This document shows positions 56,278-59,903 of a stretch of 64,000 bases of DNA, one piece after another. The stretch spans positions 186,001 to 250,000 of IMG/VR virus record IMGVR_UViG_3300005253_001115, one strand, 5' to 3'. The position numbers and the translations under genes are program-made. Each line of letters starts with the position of its first letter. The first letter of the stretch is position 1. Source of the DNA: a virus. The notes under the pieces were generated by a model that saw only the letters and a program-made list of their open reading frames with translations, ran no database searches and was not told where the DNA came from.

Positions 56278-56678
56278 TTTCTCTCCTCTGCCGCGAAATG
56301 CTGCTGAACATCCGACAGAAGCTCGTCCAGCTTCCCCTCAAGGATGTCCTTGTAGCGATAGGTCTTCCCGGAACGGTGGTCCTTCACACGCTGATCGGAC
56401 TCGTGATAAGTCCTTACACGTTCTGTACTTGTAGCCTCTACTTGCGTTTTAGCGGCCTCTTTCATCAGAGGCACGAGGATATTCGTCATGCGCTTGAAGG
56501 CAGCCTTCTTGTTCTTTCCCTGCTCCTTATGCTCCTCGGCTTTAGCTGTAATCCCAGTTTCTACATGTGTTAATCGAACAGCCGTATCCCTTTTATTTCG
56601 ATTTTGACCACCTTTGCCGCTAGCGCGGTAGTAGTCGATTCTGATGTCTTCTTTACGAACTGTCTGTGGCCACGCCAT
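56274..56678 (-). CDS. GGQ-domain release-factor-like protein
   Basis: 134 aa from ATG 56678. The catalytic SGKGGQNRNK (GGQ at 23-25) and a C-terminal VRTYHESDQRVKDHRSGKTY match class I release factor domain 3. It has no stop-codon recognition domain, so it may rescue stalled ribosomes (ArfB or PrfH-like) rather than terminate at stop codons. All three stop codons are used in this window. Confidence 0.88.
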   Translation of the reverse strand: MAWPQTVRKEDIRIDYYRASGKGGQNRNKRDTAVRLTHVETGITAKAEEHKEQGKNKKAAFKRMTNILVPLMKEAAKTQVEATSTERVRTYHESDQRVKDHRSGKTYRYKDILEGKLDELLSDVQQHFAAEERK

Positions 56679-56716
56679 TTTGTTTCTCACATGCTTATGT
56701 TTAGGAGGGAGTATTA

Positions 56717-56722
56717 CTAAAG
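56717..56722 (+). promoter_or_regulatory. CTAAAG box upstream of LAGLIDADG gene
   Basis: GTATTACTAAAGAAAGG precedes the ATG at 56737; AAAGG within it also acts as the ribosome binding site. Confidence 0.4.
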
Positions 56723-56736
56723 AAAGGATCATCTTT

Positions 56737-57540
56737 ATGTTACTATCATTGCCTTTTGAAGAGATAATTGCACGGTACCAGAAAGGAGAATCCCAAGCAC
56801 AACTTGCTAATAGCTTTAGTGTAGACCGGCGAACTATTAGGAGAAGGCTGGTTAAAGCTGATATACCTCTTAGGTCTGGTGGAGAGGCTTCCAAGGTCCA
56901 AAAAAACAAAGCCTTTACTGCATCCACTGTGGTAAACGAATTGGTCGATGGAATGTTATTAGGTGATGCTTGGATAGAGCAAGGACAAGACAACGCTCGC
57001 CTTGGTATTGAAGTGACCAAAAAATCCGAAGGGTGGATAGAACAGATATCTGATATCCTCACAGCGCACGAGGTCAAGCATTCCATAGGGTATAGAAAAC
57101 CCAGAGAAAAAATAATAAACGGCATTCATACCCGATCAAAGGAAAGCGTTATGCTTAGGACCAGTCTATATCCTAATTTTGCTGTCCAAAGACTACGGTG
57201 GTATCCAGAAGGTACAAAAATAGTGCCCAGAGATTTAGAACTTACTGCAAGTAGTATAGCTCATTGGTATTGGGGTGACGGATCAACCAGCAAGTATATG
57301 GTCCGTCTATACACGAACAATTTCTTAGAAAAAGACTGTGAATTCCTAGTAAGCTGTCTGTTGGAGTTCGGAGTAAGTTTTTCAATAAGCAAAAGTCGCA
57401 AAAATCCTGTTCTTAGTCTGTACAACAATTCTGAAAGAGAAAGGTTTCTGGACCTAGTTCGGGACCACGTTCCAGAATGTTTCGAATACAAAGTACAAAA
57501 ACCTGTAATAGTGAGAAGAAGCAAGCCTACTCTTTTTTGA
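56737..57540 (+). CDS. LAGLIDADG-type homing endonuclease
   Basis: 267 aa. An N-terminal helix-turn-helix (ARYQKGESQAQLANSFSVDRRTIRRRLVKADI) precedes two LAGLIDADG-like motifs: LVDGMLLGDAWIEQ (~68-81) and IAHWYWGDGSTSK (~174-186). More A+T-rich than its neighbours. The stop is 8 bp before the first hairpin of the array, on the same strand, so its transcript would run into the array. Perhaps a domesticated or mobile endonuclease. Confidence 0.85.
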   Translation: MLLSLPFEEIIARYQKGESQAQLANSFSVDRRTIRRRLVKADIPLRSGGEASKVQKNKAFTASTVVNELVDGMLLGDAWIEQGQDNARLGIEVTKKSEGWIEQISDILTAHEVKHSIGYRKPREKIINGIHTRSKESVMLRTSLYPNFAVQRLRWYPEGTKIVPRDLELTASSIAHWYWGDGSTSKYMVRLYTNNFLEKDCEFLVSCLLEFGVSFSISKSRKNPVLSLYNNSERERFLDLVRDHVPECFEYKVQKPVIVRRSKPTLF

Positions 57541-57547
57541 AAATTCC

Positions 57548-57980
57548 TGCGCCGTAGACACCATAGTACCGGATTACACTGTCATGTTGGTCTACGGCGC
57601 AGAACGAGGCACGGCATTCTCCTTTTGGATTACACTGCTATGTAGGACGTTCCTCTTTGAAAATTCCTGCGCCGCAGACATCATAATGTCGGGTTACATC
57701 ACCGAGTCGGTCTGCGGCGCAAGTTAAAATGTAGTAGACACGGCAAGACCACTCGGGCTACAACTTCAACACGGCCGTGTCTACTGTGTTAGAAAAGGAG
57801 GCGCGACATTCTCCTTTTGGGTTACACTGCTATGTGGGCCGTGCCTCTTTGAAAATTCCTGCGCTGCATGGCACGGCTCTGGGGGGTTACAACATCGCTA
57901 AGGCCACACAGCGCAGGTTAAAATGTAGTAGACACGGCATATCCCAAACGGGTTACAACATTCTGCTGGCCGTGTCTACT
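57548..57980 (+). ncRNA. Hairpin array cluster 1 (seven units)
   Basis: Seven hairpins at 57548-57601, 57606-57655, 57668-57721, 57733-57785, 57798-57847, 57858-57917 and 57927-57980. Each stem of 8-13 bp closes a 30-nt loop (29 in unit 4) with the pattern A-N10-GGGTTACA-N10-G. Core variants are GGATTACA (units 1, 2) and GGGCTACA (unit 4). Units 1 and 3 differ in the stem by a compensated T-A to C-G pair; units 4 and 7 share a stem but have different loops. Upstream of units on the plus strand is an A-rich word (GAAAATT, TTAAAATG, TAGAAAAGG). No gene is seen in 57541-57989. Confidence 0.8.
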
Positions 57981-57989
57981 TTCGTTAGA

Positions 57990-58814
57990 TCAATCCGATA
58001 CCTTCCGCCACTGCTTCCACAGTTCCCGCAGGATGCGCTTCGACAGGAGCCTACGCTGGTGTAGGAAGATGTGGCCCGTTGTCCAGTCAGGGTGTGCAGC
58101 AGCAGCTTTGGCCTTCACTCCCTCAGAATATTGGTAGAATTCATTGTTGGTCTTCTTGCCGTTCTGGTGAACAGTACCCTGCACAACGAACATCATGGAT
58201 CTCCTGCTCGGGTTGTAACCGTGCAGTTTAGCCATTTCAGTGCCACGTCGAAGGCGCTGGCGAACCATGGGATCTTGCGCATTCTCGGACACCATACCTA
58301 GCCCAAAACGCTTCCACAATTTAGCGGGCGTGGCGAAATTACGCAAGTCGGCTCCGGCTTCTGCCAATATCCTTCCTACAGCTAGGAGGCTCAGGCCGGG
58401 GGTTCCTTTACCGGGGCGACCAACCCACGAAGCGATCGGCATACCTGCCACTATGGCAGTGATGTCTTTGTGGTATTGCCTTATTTGGGGGTCGAAGCCC
58501 CTGATAGCAGGGACCATAGCGAGCGCCATAATCTCCACTTTCGCAGCAAATACCTCTATTGGGTCGGTGGAGGTCCGATCAATCTCGTCAGGCTTCACAT
58601 GCAACATCCACTTTTTGTGGACGGCAGTTGCCAGCGCTCCGTCTTTTGTGCAGAGAGCGTACTTCTTAACGAAGCACGTCTTACCTTTGCAGTGGTGGTC
58701 CTGCACAGCACGCTTGATGACGCCATGTAACTGCTGGTTGAGGGACTCTCTTGCTCTCTCAAGATTCAGACAATCTCTATGGAGGCCGAGGAGTTTAGTG
58801 ATTTCGTTGTGCAT
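57990..58814 (-). CDS. Transposase_20-domain protein lacking a DEDD domain (IS110-like)
   Basis: 274 aa. The C-terminal half fits the IS110-family Transposase_20 fold: GTPGLSLLAVGRILAEAGADLRNF (helix-hairpin-helix-like, ~137-160), LWKRFGLGM (~166), a YNPSRRS segment (~200-206) and LSKRILRELWKQWR (~257-270). Residues 1-130 are helical and Cys-containing and lack the RuvC-like DEDD domain of true IS110 transposases. S176 or S203/S206 could be the catalytic serine. The ATG at 58814 has AAGGATTAGAAA upstream. Hairpins flank both ends (9 bp and 15 bp away), as bridge-RNA genes do in IS110 elements. Confidence 0.75.
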   Translation of the reverse strand: MHNEITKLLGLHRDCLNLERARESLNQQLHGVIKRAVQDHHCKGKTCFVKKYALCTKDGALATAVHKKWMLHVKPDEIDRTSTDPIEVFAAKVEIMALAMVPAIRGFDPQIRQYHKDITAIVAGMPIASWVGRPGKGTPGLSLLAVGRILAEAGADLRNFATPAKLWKRFGLGMVSENAQDPMVRQRLRRGTEMAKLHGYNPSRRSMMFVVQGTVHQNGKKTNNEFYQYSEGVKAKAAAAHPDWTTGHIFLHQRRLLSKRILRELWKQWRKVSD

Positions 58815-58829
58815 TTTCTAATCCTTGTA

Positions 58830-59152
58830 GGAGCGGCACGGAATGCTCCAAACGGGTTACACTGCATCTATGTCCGTGCCGCTCCGTAATATAGGGCGGT
58901 TGGTCAATGAGATTTCGGGTTACAAATGGGAGTTGGACCAACCATCCTGTAAAGTTGGGGCGACGCCGCACAGCGGATTCGGGTTGCATGAGCGCATCGA
59001 CAGCGTAGCCCCTTTGTAAGTTATGAGCGGCGCGACACTCTCCCAAAGGGTTGCATCACGGCGGTGGTCGCGCCGCTCTGTTATATTGAGTATTTTAGTG
59101 AGGTTGGTCACTCTTCTAGAGGGTTACACCGGTCTTTTGGACCAGCCTCACT
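58830..59152 (+). ncRNA. Hairpin array cluster 2 (five units)
   Basis: Hairpins at 58830-58885 (13-bp perfect stem), 58898-58943, 58957-59012, 59025-59078 and 59097-59152. All follow A-N10-GGGTTRCA-N10-G with a 30-nt loop; units 3 and 4 have GGGTTGCA as core. The first unit is 15 bp upstream of the transposase-like start, in its minus-strand leader. The 343-bp gap 58815-59157 holds nothing else. Confidence 0.8.
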
Positions 59153-59157
59153 GTGAT

Positions 59158-59739
59158 TTACATGTAAGTCCTCTCGCGTAGTCTCTCGACAAACTCATCC
59201 TGAACGACTGAGCCTACCGTGCGCTTGTCTCCGGCGGAGACGCCTTCGGCCTGCATCTTGTCTGCAATGGCGAAGAGCATCCGTGCGTCACGTCCGAAGG
59301 TGCCAGACTTCTTGTCTCGCATCTGCGCCTCGGTGGTCACCTGATCGAACGTAGCAGAGCGCAACTTCACGCCCCCGTGGGTCAGGTAGAATGTGTCCAT
59401 GTAGAGCGCAGCGACGGTCTCAGCACTTGCTGCGTCGGCTGCTGCTGTTCTCTTGGACTTGTTTGGCTTGGCGGCTCCGGTTGAGGGTGCCTGGGGCGTG
59501 ATAGGCAGAACCCGAGACTGCGACCGAAGTCGCTGCACGATGTTGTTGATCTGACTGTTGGCGAAGCGCTTCCAGACTTCCGTCTCGATAGCAGACGCCA
59601 TCGCAGGGCTCAGATTATCAATCTCAGCATCAGCGACAGCAAGAAAGGCAGCTTTCGCCTTCTCCCAATCTCCGCTGCTTGCTGTCCACGCTGTCTCAGC
59701 CCACTTGGCAAAGACCTCTTCTATGTCTACGGAACTCAT
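59158..59739 (-). CDS. Unknown protein embedded in the hairpin array
   Basis: 193 aa with no recognised motif. Helical N-terminus, a basic Ser/Thr/Ala linker (KPNKSKRTAAADAA, ~92-105) and a C-terminal domain. Hairpins lie 5 bp after its stop and 49 bp before its start, so it is part of the same module as the transposase-like gene. AAGGAAAACGT precedes the ATG. Possibly an RNA-binding partner. Confidence 0.65.
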   Translation of the reverse strand: MSSVDIEEVFAKWAETAWTASSGDWEKAKAAFLAVADAEIDNLSPAMASAIETEVWKRFANSQINNIVQRLRSQSRVLPITPQAPSTGAAKPNKSKRTAAADAASAETVAALYMDTFYLTHGGVKLRSATFDQVTTEAQMRDKKSGTFGRDARMLFAIADKMQAEGVSAGDKRTVGSVVQDEFVERLRERTYM

Positions 59740-59787
59740 ACGTTTTCCTTCTTTATCCCCGTGGCAAAATCGCCCGGTGGAAATGTA

Positions 59788-59903
59788 GCGGTCCTGACAC
59801 CTTGAAAGTGGGTTACAAGTTCTTTATGGTCAGGACCGCCGTTGAAGTATAGCAGGTCGGTCAGTGGCGACAAGGGTTACAAACACAGAAAGGACCGACA
59901 CTG
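59788..59903 (+). ncRNA. Hairpin array cluster 3 (two units)
   Basis: Hairpins at 59788-59839 (11-bp perfect stem) and 59853-59903 (10 pairs with one bulge), each with a 30-nt loop of the same A-N10-GGGTTACA-N10-G form. Located between the unknown embedded gene and the PRTase gene, with no gene in 59740-59931. Confidence 0.78.

What the first reader, a model, noticed from the sequence alone, without database searches (positions are those of the whole stretch)
57548..59903. Fourteen-unit hairpin array wrapped around an IS110-like Transposase_20 protein
Fourteen hairpins, in clusters of 7, 5 and 2, surround two minus-strand genes. One encodes a protein whose C-terminal half matches the IS110-family Transposase_20 domain. 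IS110 transposases are known to use a bridge RNA, encoded in the non-coding ends beside the transposase gene, that holds two guide segments. Here the flanking non-coding DNA holds many bipartite hairpin loops with a fixed core and variable flanks. I infer a multi-guide RNA system carried by a phage that has been separated from a mobile element: no terminal repeats or cargo are seen. Possible roles are programmable recombination, host or rival DNA recognition, or phage gene switching.
Basis: partly seen in the sequence, partly recalled or inferred. Interest (0 to 1): 0.97.

Follow-up and report, generated by a model that had tools for sequence, protein, structure and literature searches.

The report
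Stem-loop TIGR-Tas guide-RNA array in phage
A giant bacteriophage carries 14 small hairpins, each encoding a two-part guide, around a gene for an RNA-binding Tas protein; this is a new example of the recently described TIGR-Tas RNA-guided DNA-binding systems, not a transposon remnant, and what its guides aim at is still unknown.

Summary
In detail: 14 hairpins in clusters of 7, 5 and 2 surround two minus-strand genes in a 266,640-bp IMG/VR phage record. Read on the minus strand, the strand of the genes, the typical unit is stem-CC-[10 nt]-TGTAACCC-[10 nt]-TG-stem: two variable spacers between repeated box C (CC) and box D (UG) motifs. The protein is a nuclease-less Nop-domain Tas protein (TasA). 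A profile of 21 relatives matches the solved TasR (1e-19) and TasH (4e-9), and the predicted fold matches TasH best. At least ten relatives (one in Magnetospirillum molischianum) carry the same units, always on the tas strand. Faure et al. 2025 described exactly this architecture as stem-loop TIGR arrays, including a TasA locus with 13 stem-loops in three sub-arrays. So this is a new member of a known kind. Likely mechanism: each hairpin RNA loads a TasA dimer, and its two spacers pair with opposite strands of about 20 bp of DNA, binding without cutting. Targets were not found. Side finding: 74 mycobacteriophage records carry a homologous 5-unit array with invariant stems and shuffled, hypervariable spacers, a ready laboratory system.

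The parts
57993..58814 (-). tasA: solo Nop-domain Tas protein, 274 aa, no nuclease domain
   Evidence: HMM of 20 relatives without this protein finds it at 4e-41 among 1,965 ORFs of the record; profile hits TasR 9MTY 1.1e-19 and TasH 3.5e-9; AF2 pLDDT 85.9, best PDB match TasH TM 0.58
57545..57604 (-). unit 1: A AACATGACAG, core TGTAATCC, B GGTACTATGG
57606..57655 (-). unit 2 (degenerate stem): A TACATAGCAG, core TGTAATCC, B AAAAGGAGAA
57666..57723 (-). unit 3: A GACTCGGTGA, B GACATTATGA
57733..57785 (-). unit 4: A GTGTTGAAGT, core TGTAGCCC, B GAGTGGTCT (9 nt)
57798..57847 (-). unit 5 (imperfect stem): A CACATAGCAG, B AAAAGGAGAA
57858..57917 (-). unit 6: A TTAGCGATGT, B CCCAGAGCCG
57927..57980 (-). 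unit 7: A AGCAGAATGT, B GTTTGGGATA
58830..58885 (-). unit 8: A ATAGATGCAG, B GTTTGGAGCA; edge boxes AC/TT
58894..58948 (-). unit 9: A AACTCCCATT, B GAAATCTCAT
58957..59013 (-). unit 10: A GATGCGCTCA, core TGCAACCC, B GAATCCGCTG; edge box TC
59025..59078 (-). unit 11: A ACCGCCGTGA, core TGCAACCC, B TTTGGGAGAG
59097..59152 (-). unit 12: A AAAAGACCGG, B TCTAGAAGAG
59788..59839 (-). unit 13: A ATAAAGAACT, B ACTTTCAAGG
59853..59903 (-). unit 14 (short stem): A TTTCTGTGTT, B TTGTCGCCAC
59161..59739 (-). 193-aa gene of unknown function between sub-arrays 2 and 3; link to the system not shown
   Evidence: no Pfam or PHROG match of note, no relative near other tas loci or in phages

Best explanation
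This is a stem-loop TIGR-TasA system. The minus strand of 59903-57545 is probably transcribed with tasA and the 193-aa gene (inferred). Each of 14 hairpins becomes a guide RNA of about 50-60 nt whose closing helix replaces the edge repeat of classical TIGR arrays. The spacers of usually 10 nt are held between two equivalent box C/box D pairs (CC and UG at the helix end and in the UGUAACCC loop), each bound by one Nop domain of a TasA dimer (from homology). By the TasR/TasH rule, spacer A pairs with one DNA strand and spacer B with the other over adjacent stretches, unwinding and sharply bending about 18-20 bp without a PAM. With no nuclease domain TasA should bind rather than cut, blocking transcription or replication of competing phages, plasmids or host genes. 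Shown here: array anatomy, box motifs, Tas kinship, fold, strand coupling, and spacer variability in relatives. Inferred: transcription, processing, DNA targeting, purpose.
For: Unit grammar CC-N10-TG-N4-CC-N10-TG inside a stem with 14 different spacer pairs, two nearly alike. Arms pair in cis 8.4/9 versus 4.5/9 in trans. Protein matches the TasR of Faure et al. (9MTY) at 1e-19 and TasH at 4e-9 by profile; fold matches TasH, then IS621/ISCro4, Prp31 and Nop5. Relatives L051, L058, L059-L061, L064, L066, L067, L026 and L052 carry the same units: across 25 tas loci 62 stem units on the tas strand, 1 on the other, 0.1 expected. In relatives box C reads CCA and spacers are then 9 nt, as in TasR. 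The published stem-loop TIGR locus has the same anatomy: TasA, 13 stem-loops, three sub-arrays, units recovered as RNAs on TasA pull-down. In mycobacteriophages with a homologous locus the spacers are hypervariable while stems and flanks are conserved.
Against: No target found: none in the phage's own record with up to 2 mismatches, none in 50,697 phage records by BLAST, where 18-20 nt matches are near the limit of detection. The third position of box C (A in TasR and in most relatives) is not conserved here, and four stems are imperfect. No expression data. The best Foldseek E-value is only 2e-3, although its probability is 1.00.
Confidence: 0.93

Rival explanations
1. Degenerate IS110 element whose bridge RNA has been multiplied: hairpins serve RNA-guided recombination by the IS110-like protein.
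For: The Nop domain is homologous to the IS110 C-terminal domain; weak Transposase_20 hits in 10 of 21 relatives; IS621 and ISCro4 among the fold matches.
Against: No DEDD/RuvC domain by Pfam or in the nearly all-helical model; TasR and TasH are much closer; single-loop units in arrays, not one two-loop bridge RNA; the relatives form a family with arrays of their own, not IS copies.
Confidence: 0.02
2. The protein and hairpins form an RNA-targeting or RNA-modifying snoRNP-like complex (the spacers pair with host or phage RNA), not a DNA-binding one.
For: Box C/D guides with the same Nop domain act on RNA in archaea and eukaryotes; no DNA target was found for any guide tested.
Against: Characterised Tas proteins bind DNA and TasR cut no RNA (Faure et al.); no methyltransferase or other effector gene next to tasA was recognised.
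Confidence: 0.08
3. Hairpins are DNA elements (replication or packaging signals, or binding sites of a DNA-binding protein), not RNA guides.
For: Phages often carry repeated hairpins; transcripts were not observed.
Against: 62-to-1 strand bias with the tas gene, asymmetric boxes, hypervariable loops with constant stems, and recovery of the equivalent units as RNA on TasA in the published locus.
Confidence: 0.03

Closest known systems
TIGR-TasA system with stem-loop array, gut metagenome of Peromyscus leucopus (Faure et al. 2025, PMC12045711)
   Same: Solo Nop-domain TasA; 13 stem-loops in three sub-arrays; two 8-12 nt spacers between box C and box D; variable palindromic stems instead of edge repeats.
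   Different: Here 14 units around two genes in a 266-kb phage record; loop core almost constant (TGTAACCC, fixed at 8 nt); third base of box C not conserved. Sequence not compared directly (supplement not available).
Dual-repeat TIGR-Tas, e.g. Salicola phage CGphi29 TasH and Microcystis phage Mvi-JY20
   Same: Nop-domain protein, tandem split spacers, UG/CC-type boxes.
   Different: Short constant edge repeats in place of long variable stems; TasH has an HNH nuclease; these proteins fall in a separate part of the tree.
IS110-family recombinases with bridge RNA (IS621)
   Same: Homologous C-terminal RNA-binding domain; split guides in RNA loops.
   Different: DEDD RuvC plus catalytic serine, one two-loop bridge RNA, mobile element; none of these here.
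Box C/D snoRNP (Nop5, Nop56/58)
   Same: Nop fold with coiled coil; box C/D guide RNA logic.
   Different: K-turns with L7Ae and fibrillarin, RNA targets; not seen here.

Membership tests
TIGR-Tas, stem-loop array type | Nop-domain Tas protein encoded at the array | tested here: met
TIGR-Tas, stem-loop array type | Tandem units with two 8-12 nt variable spacers | tested here: met
   10+10 nt in 13 of 14 units, 10+9 in unit 4
[quoted passage not shown]
   CC and TG at the edge in 12 of 14 units, TG...CC in every loop; third base of box C degenerate
TIGR-Tas, stem-loop array type | Variable but palindromic sequence in place of edge repeats | tested here: met
   13 distinct arms, cis pairing 8.4/9 against 4.5/9 in trans
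TIGR-Tas, stem-loop array type | Array processed into unit RNAs bound by Tas | not testable with these tools
   Needs RNA sequencing; shown for the published locus
TIGR-Tas, stem-loop array type | Guides pair with both strands of a DNA target | not testable with these tools
   No natural target found in silico
TIGR-Tas, dual-repeat type | Constant 8-12 nt edge repeats | tested here: not met
   Edges are long variable stems
TasR / TasH nucleases | N-terminal RuvC or HNH domain | tested here: not met
   No such domain in Pfam; nearly all-helical model
IS110 transposase | N-terminal DEDD (RuvC-like) domain | tested here: not met
   No Pfam hit, no RuvC sheet in the model
IS110 element | Single bridge RNA with target and donor loops next to the gene | tested here: not met
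   14 single-loop units

The most novel reading that the evidence does not exclude
TIGR spacers are replaced as cassettes while the hairpin scaffold is kept, implying a spacer-renewal process without Cas1/Cas2. In this array units 4/7 and 1/3 share 23/24 and 21/24 stem bases but only 8/20 and 9/20 spacer bases; in mycobacteriophages the spacers turn over and shuffle inside invariant stems.
Probability: 0.3. Interest if true: 0.85.

Novelty: new member of a known kind. Interest (0 to 1): 0.5.

Why it matters
TIGR-Tas is a young class of RNA-guided, PAM-free DNA-binding systems whose targets, purpose and spacer origin are unknown. This locus adds a 14-guide, nuclease-less example in a very large phage and a defined unit grammar by which more can be found. 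The homologous array in 74 mycobacteriophage records that grow on a laboratory strain makes the open questions (what do the spacers hit, how do they change) directly testable.

Tried and rejected
Self-targeting: no A+rc(B) match with up to 2 mismatches in the 266-kb record. Targets in sequenced phages: none by BLAST for the 14 guides, for 7 guides of Gordonia phage Morrissey or for 3 mycobacteriophage guides; none for 2 guides in 17 actinophage genomes or for 2 guides in the Magnetospirillum genome. Guide 2 has an exact 20/20 match at a ribosome-binding site of an unrelated 240-kb phage, and 6 of 14 targets contain Shine-Dalgarno-like 4-mers on one strand only. I rejected this as evidence: a permuted control pattern found two ungapped hits, guide 8 found nothing and guide 13 only unrelated places, two of them inside ORFs. 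Considered and dropped: IS110 remnant, CRISPR, REP/RAYT, integron attC, tRNA or Rfam RNA (empty). The protein alone found no viral relatives; a three-sequence profile did.

Full report
What is there. The window is bases 186001-250000 of a 266,640-bp IMG/VR virus record with terminase and portal; the terminase is about 31-34% identical to those of jumbo phages such as PaBG, NCTB and Dickeya AD1. Fourteen hairpins lie at 57545-57980 (7), 58830-59152 (5) and 59788-59903 (2), flanking a 274-aa and a 193-aa gene, both on the minus strand.

The unit. On the minus strand the typical unit reads stem-CC-[spacer A, 10 nt]-TGTAACCC-[spacer B, 10 nt]-TG-stem. Only unit 4 has a 9-nt spacer; units 8 and 10 have altered edge boxes. 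Arms of the same unit pair at 8.4 of 9 positions against 4.5 for arms of different units, with 13 different arm sequences, so the stems are kept by compensation. Chance gives 0.3 such hairpins per 64 kb, and none were seen in shuffles of the region. Within the array, units 4 and 7 share 23 of 24 stem bases but 8 of 20 spacer bases; 1 and 3 share 21 and 9; 2 and 5 keep 19 of 20 spacer bases.

The protein. Pfam is silent and PHROG 4285 'transposase' hits at 1e-7. Finding units with a DNA pattern led to loci encoding relatives, and their profile to 22 viral loci and one in Magnetospirillum molischianum DSM 120. A profile of the relatives without the window protein finds it at 4e-41 among 1,965 ORFs of the record. 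The 21-sequence profile finds TasR (9MTY, 1.1e-19) and TasH (3.5e-9) in the PDB and nothing else; 9MTY is the TasR deposited by Faure et al.. The AlphaFold model (pLDDT 86) is nearly all helical with no RuvC sheet and matches TasH best, then IS621/ISCro4, Prp31 and Nop5.

The association. Across 25 tas loci, counting only units with N4 loops and stems of at least 7, 62 units lie on the tas strand, 1 on the opposite strand, and 0.1 are expected. Relatives with CG in place of TG boxes exist too. In most relatives box C is CCA and the spacers are then 9 nt, as published for TasR; in this phage the third base is free.

Comparison. Faure et al. 2025 (PMC12045711) describe TIGR-Tas systems and, in two clades, stem-loop arrays: two 8-12 nt spacers between box C and box D with palindromic variable sequence in place of edge repeats. 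Their tested example has a nuclease-less TasA and 13 stem-loops in three sub-arrays, each recovered as a unit RNA on TasA. The locus here meets every sequence-level feature, so I file it as a new member of that kind.

Mechanism. From the solved TasR and TasH complexes (known) I infer that a TasA dimer holds one hairpin RNA, spacer A pairing with one DNA strand and spacer B with the other, giving target A+rc(B). Without a nuclease domain the result should be binding and bending, not cutting. Purpose is inferred only: interference with other mobile elements or gene control.

Targets. No self-target, no match in known phages, and no hit better than a permuted control. This remains open, as in the literature.

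Natural variation. 74 mycobacteriophage records hold a homologous 5-unit array just upstream of a gene annotated variously as transposase, DNA-binding or hypothetical. In 16 aligned phages, stems and edge boxes average 0.12 bits of entropy (99 of 115 columns invariant), loops 0.86 bits and flanks 0.03 bits, and loop variants are shuffled between phages. This is what guides, and not structural hairpins, should look like.

Noticed in passing
L076, L078-L092 (Mycobacterium phages; Scowl MG944221.1 about 42.7-44.6 kb): A gene annotated 'transposase', 'DNA binding' or 'hypothetical' in 74 Fromanvirus records is a TasA homologue with a 5-unit stem-loop TIGR array (box D mostly CG) whose spacers are shuffled between phages; in Scowl a 'Cas4 exonuclease' gene follows directly.
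   Followed up: partly
L019 (IMGVR_UViG_3300049893_002378), 702-910 within ORF 367-1557: Five TIGR units of 45-nt period lie in frame inside the tas coding sequence, between the N-terminal helix and the rest of the domain, giving a KKDxxxxxVTH peptide repeat; outside the gene the period is 45-50 nt. The loop repeat TGTAACCC is identical to the window's.
   Followed up: partly
L077 (Gordonia phage Morrissey) and L074 (Rhodococcus phage Peregrin): Isolated actinophages with stem-loop units beside a Tas gene annotated hypothetical: seven well-formed units in Morrissey (several with perfect 13-18 bp stems), two in Peregrin.
   Followed up: partly
L067 (Magnetospirillum molischianum DSM 120, NZ_CAHP01000060.1): Stem-loop TIGR-TasA in a cultured bacterium, about five units with TGTTACCC/TGTTGCCC loops.
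   Followed up: partly
L002 6510-6830 (Microcystis phage Mvi-JY20): Unannotated dual-repeat TIGR array (TGCGAGCC / ACGAAACCC) directly after a Tas gene annotated hypothetical.
   Followed up: no
window 56644-57540: LAGLIDADG homing endonuclease gene with HTH, on the + strand, ending convergent with sub-array 1.
   Followed up: no
L029 4780 and 4831; L023 1893: Small numbers of TIGR-like stem units in short phage contigs with no tas gene detected in the stretch held.
   Followed up: no
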